Source of the DNA: Acidobacteriota bacterium
GTDB taxonomy: Bacteria; Acidobacteriota; UBA6911; RPQK01; JAJDTT01
Length of the DNA stretch: 36,406 nt
Assembly: GCA_022827025.1 (NCBI GenBank)
Contig: JAJDTT010000105.1
Location: 1 to 36,406, forward strand
Reading direction: 5' to 3'
Position numbers and translations under genes: made by a program. Positions 18,724-28,050 of the stretch are shown here, piece by piece. How positions within the stretch are numbered: the first letter of the stretch is position 1; every line of letters begins with the position of its first letter. A model generated the notes under the pieces. The model made no database searches and was not told the origin of the DNA. It saw only the letters and a list, made by a program, of their open reading frames with translations.

Positions 18724-18824
18724 CGATGGAGCGGCGACCAGCGGCGACATGGAGCGGCGACATCCCTGTCGCCGGGAGCGGCGTGTTTCACGCGCCGACT
18801 GGGACCGGCGTCTTATAGGCGCCG
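18724..18824. repeat. Cluster of dispersed hairpin repeats upstream of the sigma factor gene
   Basis: Three hairpins are visible. At 18755-18774, CGGCGACA-TCCC-TGTCGCCG. At 18781-18793, GCGTG-TTT-CACGC. At 18806-18824, CGGCG and CGCCG flank TCTTATAGG. They are preceded by two partial left halves reading (GGA)GCGGCGACCA and GCGGCGACAT. The third is nearly the same as the copy at 10721-10739. The cluster lies 5' of the sigma gene. The rest of 18658-18967 is A/T-richer and shows no gene. Confidence 0.8.
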
Positions 18825-18967
18825 ATCCCAGGGGGAGTAGGGGAGACGTCTACGGAAGAGATCTCATAAGTATATGATATTACAGGAGTTATTATCTTTC
18901 CTCCCGACCTGATTCCCTCATTACATCCCACGTTCTAAACGGGATTCCATTCGACCGTATTGGAGGT

Positions 18968-18975
18968 CCGTGGAC
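18968..18975. repeat. Left 8-bp target-site duplication of the IS66-ended cassette
   Basis: CCGTGGAC directly precedes the GTAAC end at 18976. An identical CCGTGGAC directly follows the GTTAC end at 20523. Eight-base duplications next to GTAA termini are the hallmark of IS66-family transposition. Confidence 0.8.
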
Positions 18976-19310
18976 GTAACCGTTCGGTCAGGCCGTGGGG
19001 ATCGACTTCCTGTGCCGGGCCTACGGCTTCGCGCTCAATGGCGACCGGGCACCCAACGAAGTGCCACCCATTCACCTCCATGGGATGGAAGCACAGAGTC
19101 GAGAAGCGACCCGTGGTTGTCGGAACGATAGGGGCGGGTCGCGTGGTGTGTAAGGACTTCGCGGCTGACGACCATCTGCCGTTATCCGGTCCGCGGGAGG
19201 TCTTGCCGCCGCGACGAGTGGCTCAAGCCCGCCAGCAACCTAAAGAGAATTGATCGCTACGGAGAGAATGTCGTTTCGACCACTCCACCACGGCTTGCCC
19301 GAACGGTTAC
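18976..19310. mobile_element. Left non-coding element with IS66-type terminal inverted repeats (element A)
   Basis: The left end reads GTAACCGTTCGGTCAG, then GCCGTGG. The right end, read inward on the minus strand, is GTAACCGTTCGGGCAA, then GCCGTGG. The ends are inverted and nearly identical over 23 bp, giving a 335-bp unit. I see no transposase fragment in any frame inside it. Its own immediate flanks (CCGTGGAC and CTGCATCC) do not match each other, so it did not insert alone at this site. It resembles a MITE. Confidence 0.75.
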
Positions 19311-19533
19311 CTGCATCCACACTTGGATCAGGTGATGCGAACCGAGGATCCGAAGGTCGCTGGTTGAGTCGTTGCGCGGCGACAGCCGCGTTTCCCCGGA
19401 TGTTGGCATCGGGTTGCGGGCGACCATAAGTGTGGTGGCCGGCCGGCACGGCTCCGCAGCGGACGACGCGTGGTCACCCCTGGAGAAAATCTTGGGAGCG
19501 ACGGGCTCCCGCGAATCGACGACGGAGAATGGG

Positions 19534-20169
19534 ATGCCCCACCGACACTTCCTTGAACTGCGCGAGGCGATTCACGACAGGCTCAGAACCCTTCAGCCTC
19601 CCTTTTGGGAAGAGCAGATAGAGAAGTATCCCTGGCTTTACGGAGCCCTCGGCGACCCCAGCGCCGACGTGATGTTCGTGTGCGAGATTCCGTCTCTGTC
19701 AGCGCTCCGGGCGATCACAGAAAGCCCTTTCGGCGGCCCACCCAACTTTGATACTCAATGGACGGGGAATCCCGACCACCGCCGGGACAAGCGCTTCCGC
19801 AAGGTGCTGTGCGACCTCGGGTTGAAGGACGGCAAGATCTGGGAGCCGGGGGGCTGGCACTGCTACATTACGAACGTCATCAAGCAGGCGGCTTTAGTGG
19901 ACAATTGGACGCAAGTTCCCCGGCACGAGAAGCGGCGAACGGCTCGTAAATGGAGCGGGATCCTTCAGATGGAAGTCGACGCGGTGCGACCGGTAATCGT
20001 TTTCTGTGTCGGCGGCGAAGCGCACTCGGCGGTGAAATGGCTTCAGAACAACGCCGGTTTGCGTGTTCCGGGGCCGATCCACCGCATCTGGTCCTACTCG
20101 GCCCGACGCGGCAACGAAGAAGTGGAGCGGAAAATGCGTAACGGGATCGCGCCGTATCTCCAAGGTTAG
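19534..20169 (+). CDS. Uracil-DNA glycosylase superfamily-like protein, cassette cargo
   Basis: From ATG 19534 (GGAG 6 nt upstream) the product is 211 residues. The layout resembles family 4/5-type uracil-DNA glycosylases: GDPSADVMFVCEIPS at about 40-54 corresponds to the motif usually read as GExPG, DKRFRKVLCDLGL at about 84-96 to the conserved helix after the active site, WHCYITNVIKQ at about 108-118 to the core strand, and PVIVFCVGGEAHSAVKW at about 153-169 to the strand before the second motif. The usual HPS-type DNA-intercalation motif is not evident; the region reads VPGPIHRIWSYSARRG. It may therefore act on another base or be a divergent non-repair member. It is the only gene inside the IS66-ended cassette. 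The in-frame TTG at 19372 has no support. Confidence 0.7.
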   Translation: MPHRHFLELREAIHDRLRTLQPPFWEEQIEKYPWLYGALGDPSADVMFVCEIPSLSALRAITESPFGGPPNFDTQWTGNPDHRRDKRFRKVLCDLGLKDGKIWEPGGWHCYITNVIKQAALVDNWTQVPRHEKRRTARKWSGILQMEVDAVRPVIVFCVGGEAHSAVKWLQNNAGLRVPGPIHRIWSYSARRGNEEVERKMRNGIAPYLQG

Positions 20170-20202
20170 GAGGGAGCTTGACGGACCGGGTTACGTCCAA
20201 GG

Positions 20203-20523
20203 GTAACTGTTTGGTCAGCCCGTGGAAGAACGGTCGGTCGGCATCCTCCCGCCGGCGCAAGCCATACTGCGTCGGCGTTGCCGCTGATCCACCAGCGCGG
20301 CGGCTGGACCACCTTTGGACAGGCCAGCCGAGGCTGCTCGCCGTGCCGCGAAATCCCTTTGCGCGGCTGGCCAACCGACCACATCGTTCCGGCACCACGG
20401 GTCTCGTCTCCGCTCTGCCCGCTGTCTGGGCGGAGGTGGAAGTGGGGGCGCTCGTCGGCTGCTCGTGCGCCATCAAGCCGAACCCGTGAGAAGTTCGAGA
20501 CCACGGCTTCACCGAACAGTTAC
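20203..20523. mobile_element. Right non-coding element with IS66-type terminal inverted repeats (element B)
   Basis: The 321-bp unit begins GTAACTGTTTGGTCAG, then CCCGTGG. It ends with a copy that reads inward GTAACTGTTCGGTGAA, then GCCGTGG. The ends share the consensus of element A (GTAACYGTTYGG core plus CCGTGG). No transposase ORF is seen inside. The inverted symmetry seems to extend a further 8 bp outward (GTCCAAGG on the left against GTCCACGG read inward on the right). It closes the cassette 34 bp after the UDG-like stop codon. Confidence 0.75.
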
Positions 20524-20531
20524 CCGTGGAC
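20524..20531. repeat. Right 8-bp target-site duplication of the IS66-ended cassette
   Basis: CCGTGGAC follows the terminal GTTAC of element B and is identical to 18968-18975. Confidence 0.8.
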
Positions 20532-21230
20532 TCCCCATGGAGGAGTTTCGAGCCTCAACTCCAGACCGAACCGCCGAGTTTGGGGGTCGGTGAAGCCCCA
20601 CCGACGAATGCCCATTGCATCTCCTCCTTTCTGGATCCGGGGTCTTCGCCGTGGGGCGAATCGTACCATGGCTCCAGAGAAAGGACCGGTGGGACCTGTC
20701 CCCCCAGGCCCCCCAGTGGCGCCAGAACCCGCGCCGGATCACCATTCCGGCGCTGAACCGGGCGCTTTTATTTGTCGCGTCCCATAAGAATGGGTCCCTC
20801 GCGCAGGATTCCCGCCGCGCCTCTCGCTGGCTTCCCGGTCGGCGCGAGTCTGTCCCCGGCCGAGAGTGGGACGATGGACACTCACCCAAACCGGTTGGCC
20901 GGAGCCTGGTTTTCGCTGCTGACAAGTAGTGTTTGGTGCCGATCGGGGAGCGCACATGGGACAACGGGGGGCATGTGCACGAAAGAGGCCTTTCGGCGTG
21001 CACGGACACTTTTCTCTAACCTACTGTGCCCGTTGCAGTTGCTGTCCAACTCGCGGCTCGGCCGTGCCGATCGGGGCATTTTGAGGAGGACGGGAGCGCC
21101 CCCCCTTTTTGCCTCCCGGATCGGCACAGCGGGGAAGGCTGATGTGCACTGCCGTGCCATCGCCTGGAGGGGTCGCTCCCGTCCCATTGATCCCTGCGGG
21201 AAGGCCAGAAATGAAACTGTGACGGGCAAG
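20532..21230. other. Accessory stretch without a convincing gene; degenerate fragments
   Basis: Several open frames overlap here but none has family features and a ribosome site. The frame around 20615-20720 encodes FAVGRIVPWLQRKDRWDLSPQ, which resembles FAVGQIVPRLLGEPENLYSLPQ in the small protein at 21410-21685, so it is probably a decayed paralogue. GTGCCGATCGGGG occurs at 20936-20948 and 21064-21076. GATCGGCAC at 21119-21127 is its inverted 9-bp arm and could form a long imperfect hairpin. I see nothing else. Confidence 0.5.
20645..20675 (+). repeat. 31-bp direct repeat, copy 1 (hairpin-bearing)
   Basis: The segment starts TTCGCCGTGGGGCGAA, which can itself fold (TTCGCC with GGCGAA), and continues TCGTACCATGGCTCC. 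It matches 21542-21572 at 28 of 31 positions. Both copies read FAVG(R/Q)IVP in their own frame, so this looks like a coding duplication. Confidence 0.7.
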
Positions 21231-21239
21231 ATGGGACGC

Positions 21240-21413
21240 ATGAGCGCCCCTGACATCCACGAGGAACGGTTGGAGACCCTCAGGAAGCAGGCGGTGGAGA
21301 GGCTGCGCTCCCGCCGCGCTTACCGCTGTCCGCACTGCGGCTATCGGAGCTTTCAGATGGACAGTCCCCACTACGGAGAAATGTGCGAGCTCCTGGCGCA
21401 ACGACCCTCATGA
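21240..21413 (+). CDS. Small zinc-ribbon-like protein (tentative)
   Basis: From ATG 21240 this is 57 residues: a charged helix (IHEERLETLRKQAVERLRSR) followed by AYRCPHCGYRSFQMDSPHYG and EMCELLAQRPS. CPHCGY is a typical zinc-knuckle half with CxxC, and a further Cys lies about 17 residues on; a complete four-ligand site is not seen. An ATG at 21231 is an alternative start, and neither has a strong ribosome site. Its TGA overlaps the ATG of the next small ORF (ATGA at 21410-21413), which argues that both are real and coupled. No family is recognised. Confidence 0.4.
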   Translation: MSAPDIHEERLETLRKQAVERLRSRRAYRCPHCGYRSFQMDSPHYGEMCELLAQRPS

Positions 21414-21685
21414 GCTTCGAACGGACCTGTGCTGGATGCCGGGAGATTCGGGGGTTGCCTGCCTCCCAGCACTGCGAGCGGTTCAGGAGGTCGGAGGGTA
21501 CACTGAGCCTCGAAGTTGAGGTCCTTCAGTGGGAGGACGATTTCGCCGTGGGGCAAATCGTACCACGTCTCCTGGGAGAACCGGAGAATCTCTATTCTTT
21601 GCCGCAGGATGTCCGCCAATTTCAGTTAATGGATATAGACGGAAAGAGATTCGGAACCCGGCCGACTAGGTATTTCAATCCGTAA
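21410..21685 (+). CDS. Small hypothetical protein coupled to the zinc-ribbon ORF (tentative)
   Basis: From ATG 21410 this is 91 residues beginning MSFERTCAGCREIRGLPASQ. The N-terminus has CxxC followed by HCERF, a possible metal site, and the C-terminal part is DDFAVGQIVPRLLGEPENLY followed by SLPQDVRQFQLMDIDG. No known family is recognised. A related fragment (FAVGRIVPWLQRKDRW) lies about 895 bp upstream at 20645-20720, and conservation of the peptide across diverged DNA hints at real coding. The 4-bp overlap with the preceding small gene suggests translational coupling. Confidence 0.4.
   Translation: MSFERTCAGCREIRGLPASQHCERFRRSEGTLSLEVEVLQWEDDFAVGQIVPRLLGEPENLYSLPQDVRQFQLMDIDGKRFGTRPTRYFNP
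21542..21572 (+). repeat. 31-bp direct repeat, copy 2
   Basis: TTCGCCGTGGGGCAAA plus TCGTACCACGTCTCC matches 20645-20675 at 28 of 31 positions. It lies within the ORF at 21410-21685. Confidence 0.7.
21618..21639 (+). repeat. 22-bp direct repeat, copy 1, upstream of the ankyrin gene
   Basis: AATTTCAGTTAATGGA followed by TATAGA. It matches 24082-24103 at 19 of 22 positions, all three differences being transitions. The copies lie on either side of the ankyrin gene, 2464 bp apart. Confidence 0.6.
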
Positions 21686-22029
21686 TCCAAGCCGGGCGGC
21701 GGCTCCGAGAGCCTTCTGTGCGACCGGATGCCGGGACGGGTTGAGACCGTCGATCCTCGTTGTCGACGCGCCGTGACGGAAAGACGGTGGGAACGGCTCG
21801 GGTTGAGGGACGTCCAGTTGAGGCTCTGGCGAGAGAGTTTTCCGGTTGAACCCGAGGAAGCGTTTCAGCTTGTTCCTCGGTCGCTCCGGTTGGTGCCGCT
21901 CGCTTGGAGTTCAGCCCTGAAATCTTCCTTTACTGGCAACTGGGCTAGGTTTACGCTGACAGGCAGTTAAACTACGCGATGCCGTTGGCATGCGGTCTGC
22001 GCCGGCAGTCCTGCCTAGGAGAGAAGACC
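21686..22029. other. Gene-free stretch; holds a remnant resembling the ankyrin gene's 3' end
   Basis: No credible gene is seen. At 21995-22010, GTCTGCGCCGGCAGTC matches the last codons of the downstream ankyrin gene (ATCTGCGTCGGCAGTC at 23912-23927, 14 of 16). Both read LRRQS in the same phase. This looks like the tail of a lost or decayed upstream paralogue. An AGGAG at about 22017-22021 serves as ribosome site for the ATG at 22030. Confidence 0.5.
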
Positions 22030-23934
22030 ATGATCAGAGTAATGTTGACGGTAAGCGCCTGGGCGGTGCTATGGACGGCTCTGGAGCCGTCGGCGCAAGA
22101 GGCGCCTCTCGATTGTAGAAAGTGGAACACGAAAGAATATTTCGAGATGGCCACGGTCCGGGACGTGAACGCGTGCCTGGCCGCCGCCGATCTGATGGAG
22201 CGGGATGTATACGGGCACGCTACCCCCCTGCATCTAGCGGCTGGATACACGAAGACTCCTGCAGTGATCGAAGCGCTGCTGGCGGCTGGCGCGGATGTGA
22301 ATGTTCGGGACGCAAAGCGTGACACGCCCCTGCATTTTGCAGCCGAGCATAACGAGAATCTGGGAGTGATCCAGTCCCTGCTGGCGGCCGGGGCCGACGT
22401 GGATGCACTGTCGGGGCCGGGACACCCACATCATATCGCCAGCCACTGGTACAACACTCCTCTGCATCGGGCGGCCATGTTCAATGGAAATCCGGAGGTG
22501 ATCGAGGCGTTGCTGGCGGCCGGGGCGGACCCAATGGCGCAGCCGGATGAAAATTACCCGACACCGCTGCAACTTTCAGCCCTGGGCAACGGGAATCCAG
22601 AGGTGATCAAGAGGCTATTGGAGGCGGCCGGGACGAAGGCTCTGGACGATGAGGTGAGAACAACCCTTTTGCTTTTAGCGGCAGGGGGCAACGAGAATCC
22701 AGCCGTGGTGGAAGTGCTCCTTAAGGCAGGTGCGGACCCCAACGCGCGGGATAAGAACAAGGATACGCCTCTCCACTCGGCGGCTCGATCCAACGGGAAT
22801 CCGGAGGTGATCGAGGCGCTGCTGGCGGCCGGCGCGGATCCCAAGACGAACGTTGCTGGTGGCCGCACACTCCTGCATGAAGCGGCCTCCCACAACAGGA
22901 ATCCCGCCATCATCGAGTTCTTAGTCAAAGGGGGGGCCGACCTGGAGGCGCGGGATTGGGCCAGTTCCACACCCTTGCATCTAGCGGCACACTTCATACG
23001 GAATCCGGAGGTGATCGAGGCGCTGCTGGCGGCCGGGGCCGACGTGAACGCACGAAATGCCAAGGAGGAAACTCCCTTGCATGTGGCGGCCGCTGAGAAT
23101 CCGAAGATAGTCGAGATTCTGCTCAAGGCGGGAGCCGACCCGATAGCGCGGGATAAAGATCGCTCTACTCCCCTACATTTGGTGGCTGGTGACCCCAGTT
23201 TGTTGGCCATGAGATCTCCATATAAGTACTATCGGGAGATGTCTGTGCGGGCGATCGAGGCGCTACTGGAGGCCGGCTCCGACCTGGAGGCGCGGGATAA
23301 GAATCGATGGACCCCTCTGCATGCGGCGGCGAGGGGCAACAAGCACCCAAAGATACATGAGTCCTTGATCGTGGCGGGGGCCAGCCTAACGGCGTTGGAC
23401 CGTGAAAATAAAACTCCCCTGCATGCGGCGGGCGAGCTCAATAGCGCCTCCGCCGCTAGGAAGGTTCTGCTGGTTGCCTGGGCCAGATTGGCCGTTGGGA
23501 AAATAGACGGCACGGCAATTTCGGATGCTGACGGCGGCACGGGGAAAACGGCGCGAGCGCGGTCCATTTTCGCGGAAGGCGTTATTATCGACCAACAACT
23601 CATTGGAAATTCCGACGGTTTCGACCCGGATGTTCCCGCGCCCGCCGGCGACACAAATGTTACCTATAAAGGGTCTTTTGTGAGGGGCAAGGCGCACGGC
23701 AACTGGATATTGAGCTTTGCGGATGGGAGCGTATTGGAAGGGCCCTATGTAGACGGGCAGATGCATGGAGACTGGGTCTTTCGCTTTGCAGATGGGAACG
23801 TATGGAAAGGCCCTTGCGTGAAAGGCCAGATGCACGGTGACTGGGTCGTGACCCTTTTTGCAAACGAATCGATGTGGACGAGGACCTACAGGAACGGCAG
23901 ATGGATCGGCGATCTGCGTCGGCAGTCTTCCTGA
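22030..23934 (+). CDS. Exported ankyrin-repeat protein with C-terminal MORN-like repeats
   Basis: From ATG 22030 the protein is 634 residues. A signal peptide (about 1-22, ending PSAQEA) is followed by about 12 ankyrin repeats of mainly 34 residues, with consensus TPLHLAA-n-NPEVIEALLAAGADVNARDK, over residues 55-485. Three to four MORN-like units (YKGSFVRGKAHGNW, LEGPYVDGQMHGDW, WKGPCVKGQMHGDW, WTRTYRNGRWIGD) follow near 550-625. Ankyrin arrays bind proteins; MORN repeats often contact lipids or proteins. An exported combination suggests a periplasmic or secreted interaction surface, and no enzymatic domain is visible. Several repeats are nearly identical in DNA (the word GGAGGTGATCGAGGCG recurs), so the array may expand or contract by recombination. 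AGGAG lies 8 nt before the ATG. Confidence 0.85.
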   Translation: MIRVMLTVSAWAVLWTALEPSAQEAPLDCRKWNTKEYFEMATVRDVNACLAAADLMERDVYGHATPLHLAAGYTKTPAVIEALLAAGADVNVRDAKRDTPLHFAAEHNENLGVIQSLLAAGADVDALSGPGHPHHIASHWYNTPLHRAAMFNGNPEVIEALLAAGADPMAQPDENYPTPLQLSALGNGNPEVIKRLLEAAGTKALDDEVRTTLLLLAAGGNENPAVVEVLLKAGADPNARDKNKDTPLHSAARSNGNPEVIEALLAAGADPKTNVAGGRTLLHEAASHNRNPAIIEFLVKGGADLEARDWASSTPLHLAAHFIRNPEVIEALLAAGADVNARNAKEETPLHVAAAENPKIVEILLKAGADPIARDKDRSTPLHLVAGDPSLLAMRSPYKYYREMSVRAIEALLEAGSDLEARDKNRWTPLHAAARGNKHPKIHESLIVAGASLTALDRENKTPLHAAGELNSASAARKVLLVAWARLAVGKIDGTAISDADGGTGKTARARSIFAEGVIIDQQLIGNSDGFDPDVPAPAGDTNVTYKGSFVRGKAHGNWILSFADGSVLEGPYVDGQMHGDWVFRFADGNVWKGPCVKGQMHGDWVVTLFANESMWTRTYRNGRWIGDLRRQSS

Positions 23935-24260
23935 CAGTAGGTCCTCGGGGAAGTCTTCAGCTCTGCGCCGGGGCCGCGAATTATTGTCGGTAATGTCCGT
24001 TGCCGTGACCCAGTCCAGGGGACGGATCGGTGACGGCGTCGGAAGTTCCGAATCACGTGTGGACGGGAGGCGAGGACCGTAAATTTCAGTTAACGGACGT
24101 AGAAACATCCGGAAGGGACCACCGAAAACCACTCACGAATCCGACCGGGATGAGAATGGAGTGACCTGTGAGTAGCCACAACAAAGGGACTCGATACTAC
24201 GGCACTATTCTCACCAGTCGGAAACAAAAGGTCCAAGGCAGGTCTATAGTCCCCATTGTA
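23935..24260. other. Gene-free stretch between ankyrin gene and exported hypothetical gene
   Basis: No independent gene is supported. It contains the second copy of the 22-bp repeat (24082-24103). A GTG at 24168, with GGAG 6 nt upstream, could extend the next gene by 31 residues. Otherwise I see nothing in it. Confidence 0.5.
24082..24103 (+). repeat. 22-bp direct repeat, copy 2, downstream of the ankyrin gene
   Basis: AATTTCAGTTAACGGA followed by CGTAGA; 19 of 22 identical to 21618-21639. Confidence 0.6.
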
Positions 24261-25322
24261 ATGAAGTTGCTCATCGCACTGGCTTTCATTCTGTCTTTGG
24301 CACGCGCCGAGGAGCTGCCCGTCACGATCAGCGAAGTATCGATCGTCGAAGGCCCTCCCTTGTCCTTCGAGTTCACCATCACCGGCCCCTTCTTTGATGA
24401 ACACAAGATGGAGCGACTCACGATCCGGGGCATTCCCCACGAACTGGCGCGTGATTACAAAAGCTACTTGAACCCGGAGGTAGTGCGCTCTCCCATAGGT
24501 CCAGAACACCTCGCAATGGCCTTCAGGTATGGCAGCAACCGTCTGGAGTTCTATCGCGATGGGGAACTGGTCCACGCTGGAGACGGGGGCGGAATGACCT
24601 CCTATCTGTCGGAGGTGTGTATTGACCCCGGTTCGGGTCGGCTCAGGCTGATGTTTAACCTGTGGAGCGGCAGTGCGAGCATCCCTGGCCGAGACGACAT
24701 TTTTTATTTCGTTCCCGGCAAGGGAATCGTCAGCAAAACTCTCGCCTGGCATGAGTACAGAGTCACGACGATCGATTGTGCAGAGGATGAGACGCGCTGG
24801 GAAGAGGGTGCGCCGCCCTGGGAATGGGGCGAGAGTTTCCGCCCGTGCCGCTGTGCCGGCAGGATTGACGGTGAGGACTACTTCTCTGCCGCGAGCGAAA
24901 TAATAAGCGCAGAGACAATCGAAAACCCGATTTCGGAAGCGGACTTCTCCTCATTACTTTCCCGGATCGGCGGATGGGAGAAAGTTCTTGATCGGTTCGA
25001 GGGCACTGCGGTGGACGTTCAGCGCTTCGAGTCTTCCAAATTCGAGGTCGTGGCGATCACCTACGAGGATTCGCTAAGAGCCTTTGGCTCGTCCCAGACT
25101 ATCTTCGTGCACCGAGTGGGAGATGGATACTGGGTCCGGGTTTACGCCGCGCCAGAAACGTCAAAGGGATTCCTCAAGGCGACGATTCACGGGTTGGTGA
25201 ATGAGGATGTTTTGGACTTGACCATGAATGTCGACGAAACGCCCTACTGGGGAAGATTTGAGCGCGTGACAAAGAACCTTCGGGAGTGGTGGCAGGAGGC
25301 GGATCGAGCCAGGCAGCCATAG
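24261..25322 (+). CDS. Exported hypothetical protein
   Basis: From ATG 24261 the protein is 353 residues, starting with a clean signal peptide (MKLLIALAFILSLARAEEL). I recognise no domain. The mature part is mixed alpha/beta and acidic. It has cysteines in VCIDPG, DCAEDE and PCRCAG that could form disulfides after export, and a C-terminal region rich in aromatic residues (DGYWVRVY, ETPYWGRFERVTKNLREWW). The ATG has no clear ribosome site, while an in-frame GTG at 24168 does (GGAG at 6 nt) and would add 31 residues, giving a longer n-region; the true start is uncertain. It sits on the plus strand between the ankyrin gene and the oppositely oriented chimeric locus, and no functional link is evident. 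Confidence 0.7.
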   Translation: MKLLIALAFILSLARAEELPVTISEVSIVEGPPLSFEFTITGPFFDEHKMERLTIRGIPHELARDYKSYLNPEVVRSPIGPEHLAMAFRYGSNRLEFYRDGELVHAGDGGGMTSYLSEVCIDPGSGRLRLMFNLWSGSASIPGRDDIFYFVPGKGIVSKTLAWHEYRVTTIDCAEDETRWEEGAPPWEWGESFRPCRCAGRIDGEDYFSAASEIISAETIENPISEADFSSLLSRIGGWEKVLDRFEGTAVDVQRFESSKFEVVAITYEDSLRAFGSSQTIFVHRVGDGYWVRVYAAPETSKGFLKATIHGLVNEDVLDLTMNVDETPYWGRFERVTKNLREWWQEADRARQP

Positions 25323-25520
25323 CAAAGCTTTCAAACTGTCCCACAGAAATCCGGACGGCTAAGCCGCGCGTCCCCGCACCATGCTAGAAACATACTCTCG
25401 CGGCGGGGCGGACACCGCAGGAAACGGGGGTATCAGGGGCATGGTTTAGAATACGATAAAGTATATTATACGGACCTTTCCGGGAGTCCGGATCAGCACA
25501 GGAGACGAAGGGCTGAGAGA

Positions 25521-27134
25521 TCAGAAGAGCCCAGGGTAGTCTTCAGGAGTGTACTGATCCGCCGGAAACGGCTGCATCACACTCTTGATCAGCTTTTCTC
25601 TACGGTCGCAGGCGACGAGTCGGGCGTCGAGCATCCGAACATACTGCTCGCCCTTTTGACGTACAGATTCATTCGAAGGATCGATGTGACTCTCTACGTG
25701 TTCCTTCATCCTGTGTATCCAGCCTCGAACGACGTTGAGCGACGCAAGGTCCTTTTCAGGATCATCGGAACCGAAATTGAGGAGCCCCTTGAACGGGAAG
25801 ATGGCAGTGAGGTCACCGTCCGTCTCGACACAGCGGGAAAACACCTCTTTTACGCATTCATCGGACTGTCGCTGAACATATTGGACAACGTCCATATCAA
25901 CCTCGATGAACGGGGTCCCGCGCTCGTCGGCATCTCTTCTGAAAATGGAAACCTGCTTTTCCCCCTCGACGGCCTCGCTGAAGCCAACACCAATTTGATA
26001 TTCGGCTGTGTGATAAATCGGACCACGTTTGATGTAGCCGCGACACATGATTCCCTTTGATAGCAATCTCCTACAGGCGCCCCAGCAATGGCCAACAAGA
26101 TTGATGAGTCCTGCCGGTGAGATCTCGGCTGAGATCAACACGCTGTCGGAAACTTGAGTGATGCGAAAGTCCAGGTCCTTCCTAATCCATGGTGCCTGGG
26201 GACAGGTCGTGGGACCGTATTTTTTGAAATGTTCGCGCTCCGTGGGTTTGCCCAGCATGTCCGTAATTTCGCAAAACTCCTTGAGTGACAGACCGCGTCC
26301 TGTATCGGAACCACGGACATGAAACTTCCATCCAAGCACGTCCACGAAAGCGATGAATTTTTCGGTGTACTGAAGCTCGCTCAATGCCCTCTCACGGGTG
26401 ATGACACCCACGAGGTCGCGGACCTGGGACACTGTGACGTGTCCGGACTTCACCGAGAAGATGATCTTCTTGGTCTTTCCACCCCGGCCTTCGTCATGGA
26501 AGTTTTTCTGACCATCAATACCCCGGTCGGCTCCCTTTTTTGGTTTAACAGGTCGACCTTCGACCAAGCCGAGAGCCCACAACTCGAACTGATGGGTGTC
26601 GTCCGCTGCCAGAGCGGTCGCATCCTGGAGGCTGACCGGTTCACCGATGACGTCAAATTGGCAGTCCTTCCCGAAGGAGTCCCGCAGCCGGTATCGGACT
26701 AGGGAAACAGCCAACTGGGTGATGTCGATCCCGATCCAGCGACGATCGAGCTTCTGAGCTGCGGCAATGGCTGTTCCACATCCGCAGAAGGGGTCCAAGA
26801 TGGTGTCGCCTTCGTTGCTGCTTGACCTGACGATCCGCTCAAGGAGAGCTATGGGTTTCTGCGTGGGATAGCTGAGGCGTTCTCTTGAGGTATTCGCAAT
26901 TCGTGGAATATCGGTCCAGATATTCTGAAGTGGTTTCCGTGGTGATTCGTCAAGGCAGACCTTTTCCCCGTCTAGTCTAGGAATGCCATCCCGTTTTGTC
27001 TCGATGCGGCCCTGAGCCCACATCTCCTCCAAACCTTCCAAGCTCTTGGACCACATCCTAGTTGGTCCTGGGATGGTCCCCCGCCACTCGAACCTTCCGG
27101 AATTGCCTCGAAGAGGTGCAGTCAGATTTTCCAA
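25521..27134 (-). CDS. Chimeric frame: DNA methyltransferase C-terminal half joined to a class III nucleotide-cyclase-like protein
   Basis: One frame of 537 residues holds two unrelated parts. Residues 1-250 are the C-terminal half of an N6/N4 DNA methyltransferase: SYPTQKP at about 88-94, motif I DPFCGCGTAIAAAQ at 114-127, then a C-terminal region ending IIFSVKSGHVTVSQVRDLVG. Homology stops abruptly near RERA at 247-250. From residue 251 the sequence looks like a stand-alone class III cyclase-fold protein: KFIAFVDVLGW with Asp265, RITQVSDSVLIS with Asp330, RGYIKRGPIY and GVGFSEAVEGE, matching the two metal-aspartate strands and the following strand-helix of cyclases. The cyclase part could start independently at TTG 26382-26384 (287 residues, AGAGG 3 nt upstream). 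The nominal start at 27134 is a TTG without ribosome site just after an amber codon, so the methyltransferase part is probably not made. Confidence 0.65.
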   Translation of the reverse strand: MENLTAPLRGNSGRFEWRGTIPGPTRMWSKSLEGLEEMWAQGRIETKRDGIPRLDGEKVCLDESPRKPLQNIWTDIPRIANTSRERLSYPTQKPIALLERIVRSSSNEGDTILDPFCGCGTAIAAAQKLDRRWIGIDITQLAVSLVRYRLRDSFGKDCQFDVIGEPVSLQDATALAADDTHQFELWALGLVEGRPVKPKKGADRGIDGQKNFHDEGRGGKTKKIIFSVKSGHVTVSQVRDLVGVITRERALSELQYTEKFIAFVDVLGWKFHVRGSDTGRGLSLKEFCEITDMLGKPTEREHFKKYGPTTCPQAPWIRKDLDFRITQVSDSVLISAEISPAGLINLVGHCWGACRRLLSKGIMCRGYIKRGPIYHTAEYQIGVGFSEAVEGEKQVSIFRRDADERGTPFIEVDMDVVQYVQRQSDECVKEVFSRCVETDGDLTAIFPFKGLLNFGSDDPEKDLASLNVVRGWIHRMKEHVESHIDPSNESVRQKGEQYVRMLDARLVACDRREKLIKSVMQPFPADQYTPEDYPGLF

Positions 27135-27179
27135 CTTGTATTTTCGCCCATCCTCGTCGGTATGCTTGAACCTCTTCAG

Positions 27180-27805
27180 CTACGACTCGCCGTAGGCCTC
27201 ATAGAGCGGGTTCCATGCCGGACTAGAACCCCTTGAGTAGTAGAGAATCACGTCGGCGATGTTTCCGTACTTGGTAGCGTCATTATGACTCTCGTGACGT
27301 TGCCAAGTAATTTCATTGCGAAAGTTCAGTTTCCCGAAAATCGAATCCAATAGCAGCTTCAAGTAATGGCTGGCCGTTGGATCGCAGTGCAGGTAGAGAC
27401 TCCCCGTTAGTTTTAGCACCCTCCAGAGCTCCAAGAGACGGGGAGCCATCATCGATAGGTAGGCTAGCATGTCGTTGGTGCCGAGAATTTGCCTGAAGGC
27501 AATCAGGGCCTCGGCTACCTGCCCCCCAGCCTCGACCTTGTTCTTCACCACATGCGCCAGCGCCGCCTCGACCACCTCGCGCGGATGATCCGTCTCCTCC
27601 GCCGCCCAGTCCCGGAACGACGACCGGAACCCGTGCGGCACGGCGGCGATCCCGTTCCACCGCAGTAGCTTGCGCAACCGACCCGAGCCGAGGGGCTTTC
27701 CGCCCTCCCGGGGGAAGATCAACCGGGCGGCTCCATCCTCCAGCGTCCGGGCTTCCTCCAGAATTTCCTGCGCCCGGCCACACAGCGGCACCCGGTGCTC
27801 CCGTT
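27180..27805 (-). pseudogene. Tyrosine-recombinase C-terminal remnant fused to a truncated DNA methyltransferase, ending in an amber stop
   Basis: From about 27805 to 27528 the minus strand encodes the end of a phage-type integrase: REHRVPLCGRAQEILEEA, then PHGFRSSFRDWAAEETDHPR and ALAHVVKNKVEA. The N-terminal two thirds and the final Tyr segment are missing, and a TAA lies just upstream. At about 27528 the frame switches to a site-specific DNA methyltransferase (GGQVAEALIAFRQILGTNDM, then LELWRVLKLTGSLYLHCDPT, WQRHESHNDATKYG and WNPLYEAYGES). The catalytic DPPF-type motif expected N-terminal to this segment is absent. A TAG at 27180-27182 stops the frame, but methyltransferase homology continues in phase (LKRFKHTDEDGRKYKLENLT), so this is a nonsense mutation in an already truncated gene. 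Confidence 0.8.
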
Positions 27806-28050
27806 ACACCATAACAAACGGGATGGAGTTGGATATCAAGGGATGTCAGGGGAGGATGAAACGCGTTCAGAATGGGTATAAACTAAAGAAATACAACCAC
27901 TTAATAGATATTCTGGGATCTCTTTGGATACCTGTGGAATCTAAAGGGGTGTTGAGTGGACGGCAGTCCCTCTACGCTTCCCCCCCCCCGAATGGCACAT
28001 GACCAAAAAGGAACAAAGAAAAAGACGGGGGACAGGAAAGTCCCCCCTCC
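27806..28050. repeat. A/T-richer intergenic DNA with two dispersed hairpins
   Basis: No gene is seen. GGAC-GGCA-GTCC lies at 27958-27969 and is followed by TCTACGCTTCC, closely matching the copy at 10753-10784. GGGGGAC and GTCCCCC flank AGGAAA at 28027-28046, just past the frdD stop. A run of ten C residues lies at 27980-27989. The second hairpin could influence the frd mRNA 3' end but lacks a T-tract. Confidence 0.7.

What the first reader, a model, noticed from the sequence alone, without database searches (positions are those of the whole stretch)
25521..26384. Class III nucleotide-cyclase-like protein next to methyltransferase and integrase wreckage
The 287-residue segment has the FVDVLGW (Asp265) and VSDSVLIS (Asp330) strands and the RGPIY and GVGFSEAVEGE segments expected of a cyclase fold, but lacks the usual receptor domains. 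Stand-alone cyclases of this general type act in Pycsar antiphage signalling, and the neighbourhood holds remnants of a modification enzyme and an integrase, as in defence islands. No TM-, TIR- or nuclease-type effector is adjacent, so it may be an orphan or an undescribed type.
Basis: inference. Interest (0 to 1): 0.66.

Follow-up and report, generated by a model that had tools for sequence, protein, structure and literature searches.

The report
Cyclase-fold protein riding restriction-modification operons
A small intact gene on a 9-kb imported DNA island encodes an enzyme-like protein with the fold of cyclic-nucleotide makers but an altered active site, and its relatives keep turning up inside bacterial anti-virus (restriction-modification and BREX) operons, which suggests an uncharacterised kind of defence effector.

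Summary
On the minus strand, 25521-26384 encodes a complete 287-aa protein with a high-confidence class III nucleotidyl-cyclase fold (AlphaFold pLDDT 92; all 15 PDB matches with E <= 0.001 are class III cyclases). Both metal aspartates are invariant in about 100 relatives. The class III Asn...Arg transition-state pair is absent from all 101, so this is a distinct active site. No PADLOC PycC, Pfam or NCBIfam model matches, and no Pycsar effector is adjacent: membership of Pycsar is not supported. The gene lies on a ~9.2-kb island absent from 3 of 3 same-genus genomes. It is fused in frame to the only N6/N4 methyltransferase above cut-off in the genome, which is broken (integrase tail at its N-end, internal TAG, last ~84 codons lost). 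In an Edaphobacter assembly, relatives of the same two genes sit 2 nt apart. Other relatives directly adjoin type IIL (MmeI), type I, type ISP and BREX genes; another clade pairs with Panacea antitoxins, the arrangement of the validated toxin PanT of phi52237. Best reading: a mobile cyclase-fold effector attached to R-M or antitoxin partners, here orphaned by decay of its partner. Toxicity, product and regulation are inferred, not shown.

The parts
25521..26384 (-). Cyclase-fold protein, 287 aa, intact; TTG start at 26384 (TTG AGC GAG aligns with ATG AGC GAG of the Edaphobacter relative)
26385..27134 (-). C-terminal part of a broken N6/N4 DNA methyltransferase (motif DPFCGCGT, then a restriction-endonuclease-like domain), in frame with the cyclase-fold protein; about 84 codons of its 3' end missing compared with the Edaphobacter relative
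27180..27182 (-). In-frame TAG that interrupts the methyltransferase
27183..27527 (-). N-terminal part of the same methyltransferase (boundary with the integrase tail approximate)
27528..27791 (-). C-terminal ~88 residues of a tyrosine recombinase (P4-type integrase), fused in frame to the methyltransferase fragment
18732..28043 (.). Genomic island of about 9.2 kb, absent from three same-genus genomes (158-176 nt at that place); lower G+C (53-59%) at 25-27.8 kb against 64% in the flank
24168..25322 (+). Convergent ORF of 384 aa, no Pfam match, signal-peptide-like N-terminus; no sign that it partners the cyclase

Best explanation
A horizontally moved accessory gene encoding a stand-alone protein of the class III nucleotidyl-cyclase fold. 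SHOWN: intact gene; cyclase fold by prediction; invariant metal aspartates; class III Asn/Arg pair replaced; on an island; relatives of the same methyltransferase and cyclase genes tightly paired in Edaphobacter; relatives embedded in R-M and BREX operons or paired with Panacea antitoxins. INFERRED: it is a metal-dependent nucleotide-processing effector that arrests growth, and it acts with, or is held in check by, the neighbouring DNA-modification or antitoxin protein, as the anticodon nuclease PrrC is held by the EcoprrI type I enzyme (PMC3874165) and PanT of phi52237 by PanA (PMC8832971). A phage that disables or titrates the partner would release it. In this genome the partner methyltransferase is dead, so the copy is probably an orphan, silent or waiting for another partner.
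For: Fold: pLDDT 92.1, pTM 0.87; top PDB matches Rv1900c and Ma1120, Foldseek probability 1.00, PycC structures among the matches. Residues: D15 100/100, D80 101/101, Asn+Arg pair 0/101. Clade of 16, support 100/100. Tight neighbours: N6/N4 methyltransferase 2 nt upstream in L016; MmeI-type enzyme 22 nt upstream in L018; HsdR upstream in L024; PglX and PglZ on either side in L026; type ISP in L065; HsdS/HsdM in L105 and L115. R-M within 1.5 kb in 4 of 17 core loci (window included) against 0 of 30 canonical cyclase loci (Fisher p 0.013). Panacea antitoxin next to L056, L069, L076, L083 and L108, the layout of the validated toxin PanT of phi52237; the window protein matches that PHROG at 1.6e-6. 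Empty site in 3/3 congeners.
Against: No activity, toxicity or phage-defence test exists for this clade. Most core members (13 of 17) have no R-M gene directly adjacent. The R-M count uses queries drawn from the same loci, which favours the family, and two of the four cases (window, Edaphobacter) may be one inherited operon (p 0.037 if merged). If the methyltransferase were the sole silencer of a toxin, its loss here should have been lethal. Without Asn/Arg the protein may not be a cyclase at all. The Panacea-linked clade is distant (about 20-25% identity), and PanT of phi52237 was not compared directly.
Confidence: 0.45

Rival explanations
1. A signalling cyclase of Pycsar type (cyclic pyrimidine or purine messenger) whose effector lies elsewhere or was lost.
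For: Fold match includes PycC structures 8jsf and 8jsz; both metal aspartates kept; one distant relative (L035) lies 30 nt from a true PycC.
Against: No PADLOC PycC match at E <= 1, while the L035 neighbour matches PycC at 8e-39 and has the Asn/Arg pair. No CNBD, TM or TIR partner adjacent in the core loci examined; in L013 an AbiJ_NTD5-TIR protein without a CNBD match lies about 1.5 kb away.
Confidence: 0.12
2. The window copy is a passenger: a once useful gene in a decaying island, now without function.
For: Partner methyltransferase broken in three ways, integrase reduced to a tail, TTG start with no partner operon; island absent from congeners.
Against: The 287-aa frame is intact and keeps every residue invariant in the clade, so it has not decayed visibly.
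Confidence: 0.28
3. A non-catalytic or regulatory member of the fold: it binds a nucleotide and metal and tunes the neighbouring modification enzyme, without making a messenger or being toxic.
For: Class III transition-state pair lost in all 101 relatives; direct adjacency to modification enzymes of several types.
Against: Two invariant metal aspartates plus near-invariant His125, Glu142 and Lys244 look like an active site; the related Panacea-linked layout contains a proven toxin.
Confidence: 0.15

Closest known systems
PanT of Burkholderia prophage phi52237 (PanAT toxin-antitoxin; Kurata et al. 2022, PMC8832971)
   Same: Same predicted fold; the gene layout PanA-cyclase is found in our L056, L069, L076, L083 and L108; the window protein matches their PHROG 21097 at 1.6e-6 over residues 5-187.
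   Different: The window clade is a separate, strongly supported clade, is not paired with Panacea, and adjoins R-M genes in several cases. The PanT sequence itself was not fetched. The paper calls it a putative nucleotide cyclase and does not show a cyclic nucleotide.
Pycsar cyclases PycC (PMC11224242)
   Same: Class III fold, single cyclase domain, two metal aspartates, defence neighbourhoods.
   Different: No PycC profile match; Asn/Arg pair absent; no cyclic-nucleotide-sensing effector next door.
PrrC of EcoprrI (PMC3874165)
   Same: Works-like comparison only: an effector gene inserted in an R-M operon.
   Different: PrrC is an anticodon nuclease; no match to it was seen and no relation is claimed.
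DUF2652 cyclase-like proteins (PMC4886424)
   Same: Uncharacterised soluble class III-fold proteins, some with altered transition-state residues.
   Different: No DUF2652 match; the mycobacterial DUF2652 proteins keep the arginine, this family does not keep the Asn/Arg pair.

Membership tests
[quoted passage not shown]
   AlphaFold model pLDDT 92.1 and PDB matches to class III cyclases at probability 1.00
Class III nucleotidyl cyclase (enzyme) | Two metal-binding aspartates | tested here: met
   D15 and D80 invariant in about 100 relatives
Class III nucleotidyl cyclase (enzyme) | Transition-state Asn and Arg (GDxVNLASR) | tested here: not met
   Register from the hhalign segment (weak: probability 2%) and motif spacing; 0 of 101 relatives have both. 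Asn alone is dispensable in some cyclases (PMC4886424).
Class III nucleotidyl cyclase (enzyme) | Forms a cyclic nucleotide from an NTP | not testable with these tools
   No biochemical data
Pycsar | Cyclase recognised by PycC models | tested here: not met
   0 PADLOC families at E <= 1 for the protein; positive control L035 neighbour 8e-39
Pycsar | Adjacent CNBD-linked TM or TIR effector | tested here: not met
   None beside the window gene; none recognised next to core relatives
PanAT toxin-antitoxin | Panacea (PF13274) antitoxin adjacent | tested here: not met
   None in the window; present in a different clade (PF13274 in L108, 2.3e-15)
PanAT toxin-antitoxin | Toxic when expressed, neutralised by partner | not testable with these tools
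   Shown for phi52237 PanT only (PMC8832971)

The most novel reading that the evidence does not exclude
A class III-fold family with an altered active site serves as a general guard effector that inserts into many unrelated DNA-modification systems (N6/N4 methyltransferase, MmeI type IIL, type I, type ISP, BREX) and is set off when a phage disables them, through a nucleotide product that is not a standard 3',5'-cyclic nucleotide.
Probability: 0.18. Interest if true: 0.85.

Novelty: new variant of a known kind. Interest (0 to 1): 0.52.

Why it matters
No Pfam, NCBIfam or PADLOC model covers this family, so current defence annotation misses it. Its repeated placement inside R-M and BREX operons points to a second, cyclase-fold layer behind DNA modification. 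The altered active site makes a direct question testable: what does a class III fold do when the metal site is kept and the Asn/Arg pair is gone?

Tried and rejected
Pfam, NCBIfam and PADLOC searches of the protein gave nothing. Two same-phylum matches (L003, L004) were thioredoxin reductases, not relatives. Sequence search of the PDB gave only chance matches. Profile comparison with canonical cyclases was in the expected register but weak (probability 2%), so the fold claim rests on structure. L010 was first thought to be an integron cassette; its repeats are 193-nt inverted repeats flanking a 3-kb unit, so that was dropped. A 141-aa ORF beside core member L011 looked Panacea-like by eye, but Pfam gave no Panacea match, so it is not counted. 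No tRNA or Rfam family marks the island ends. Searches for more members of the core clade in two other classes found only 2 more weak ones. DUF2652 was considered as a name for the family and rejected.

Full report
WHAT IS THERE. The finding's coordinates hold a gene on the minus strand; the plus strand is interrupted. The protein of 287 residues starts at TTG 26384 and ends at 25521. It is part of a 537-codon open frame (25521-27134) whose first 250 codons are the C-terminal part of a DNA methyltransferase (PF01555, 3.4e-23).

IT IS A COMPLETE, SEPARATE PROTEIN. Relatives with 41-48% identity over the full length were found in Acidobacteriota (Edaphobacter L016), in the window's own phylum (L002), and in Nitrospirota, Planctomycetota, Geobacter, Halanaerobium and Pseudomonadota. 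They are stand-alone proteins of about 270-290 residues that start at the same place. The Edaphobacter start ATG-AGC-GAG lines up with TTG-AGC-GAG of the window. The frame of the window copy is open and keeps all residues that are invariant in the clade. In a tree of 101 relatives the clade of 16 has support 100/100, and the window protein groups with L002, L016 and L018 with moderate support (91/77). The clade is rare: 10 of 396 genomes of the phylum match the broader profile, and only one besides the window's carries a close relative.

FOLD AND ACTIVE SITE. AlphaFold2 with 29 aligned sequences gives pLDDT 92.1 and pTM 0.87. All 15 PDB matches with E <= 0.001 are class III cyclases (Rv1900c 1ybt first, E 9e-5, probability 1.00), and the cytidylate and uridylate cyclases 8jsf and 8jsz are also matched. 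A Panacea-linked relative (L056) modelled separately also matches only class III cyclases at the top. Across 101 relatives D15 is present in all 100 sequences that cover it and D80 in all 101. The positions that carry Asn and Arg in canonical class III cyclases hold other residues: no relative has both, whereas 18 canonical cyclases from relatives of the window's genome all have them and so does the PycC next to L035. The register of that comparison comes from motif spacing and from a weak hhalign segment, so it is likely, not proven. Other strongly conserved residues are S79, R115-G116, H125, A138, E142, P158 and K244. I conclude: class III fold shown by prediction; ordinary cyclase chemistry doubtful.

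THE METHYLTRANSFERASE AND INTEGRASE. The methyltransferase is broken in three ways: an integrase C-terminus replaces its N-terminal residues, a TAG lies at 27180-27182, and about 84 C-terminal codons are missing, so that it reads straight into the cyclase-fold gene. It is the only N6/N4 methyltransferase above cut-off in the genome. In Edaphobacter L016 a methyltransferase 56-59% identical keeps its full C-terminus and stops 2 nt before the cyclase-fold gene; that copy has one frameshift, real or an assembly error. So the pair is a recurring arrangement rather than a chance neighbour.

THE ISLAND. In three same-genus genomes the sequence left of 18.73 kb is joined to the sequence right of 28.04 kb with only 158-176 nt between. 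About 9.2 kb was gained by this lineage (or lost from all three). G+C falls to 53-59% at 25-27.8 kb against 64% in the flank.

NEIGHBOURS OF RELATIVES. Clustering neighbours of about 114 loci and reading adjacent genes gave: an MmeI-type (type IIL) enzyme 22 nt upstream of the match in L018; HsdR just upstream of L024 (itself a truncated copy) and a SIR2-like gene after it; PglX 22 nt upstream and PglZ 58 nt downstream of L026 (BREX); a type ISP enzyme 32 nt downstream of L065; HsdS and HsdM on both sides of L105; HsdS overlapping L115; PycC 30 nt downstream of L035. The R-M, BREX and PycC assignments were confirmed with Pfam and PADLOC; the SIR2 call is by eye. Panacea antitoxin genes precede five relatives (Pfam PF13274, 2.3e-15 in L108; the other four by sequence clustering) and ParA-like ATPases precede five others. 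R-M genes lie within 1.5 kb in 4 of 17 core loci and 10 of 114 loci, against 0 of 30 loci of canonical cyclases (p 0.013 for the core, 0.089 for all). This test is biased in favour of the family because the queries came from it, and some control loci carry shorter flanks.

FUNCTION. The nearest experimental fact is PanT of Burkholderia prophage phi52237: toxic, neutralised by PanA, predicted nucleotide cyclase, mainly blocks transcription; its product was not identified (PMC8832971). The same gene-pair layout is in our L056, L069, L076, L083 and L108; three of these were tested against PHROGs and belong to phrog_21097, which the window protein matches at 1.6e-6. I did not fetch the phi52237 sequence because its host is a listed pathogen. 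For R-M linkage the known precedent is PrrC (PMC3874165). I therefore favour an effector attached to a modification enzyme or antitoxin, orphaned here. That the window genome survives with a dead methyltransferase means that the enzyme is not the only thing keeping the protein harmless, or that the gene is silent.

VERDICT. Observation confirmed; Pycsar membership not supported; a rare, mobile, cyclase-fold clade of R-M neighbourhoods, distantly related to relatives that share the layout of a proven toxin. New variant of a known kind; interest 0.52.

Noticed in passing
window 19372-20169 (+): Uracil-DNA-glycosylase superfamily protein (PF03167, 1.4e-8) on the same island; DNA glycosylases can act in phage defence (from memory).
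   Followed up: partly
window 21979-23934 (+): 651-aa ankyrin-repeat protein with a weak MORN match near its C-terminus on the same island.
   Followed up: partly
L026 3404-4186: A relative of the cyclase-fold protein lies between pglX and pglZ of a BREX operon in a Bacteroidia assembly.
   Followed up: partly
L104, L110, L087, L068, L084: A clade of relatives directly follows a ParA-like ATPase gene (8-21 nt); a conserved two-gene unit of unknown role.
   Followed up: no
L035 8001-8861 and 8892-9842: A relative sits 30 nt upstream of a PycC cyclase; two cyclase-fold genes side by side, possibly a heterodimer.
   Followed up: no
L010 6615-9794: The relative and a 314-aa ORF lie in a 3-kb unit flanked by 193-nt inverted repeats (95% complementary).
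   Followed up: no
L013 10306-11349: AbiJ_NTD5-TIR protein about 1.5 kb downstream of a core relative.
   Followed up: no
G000 whole genome: The window's genome and three congeners have no canonical class III cyclase (PF00211), while most other members of the order that were searched do.
   Followed up: no
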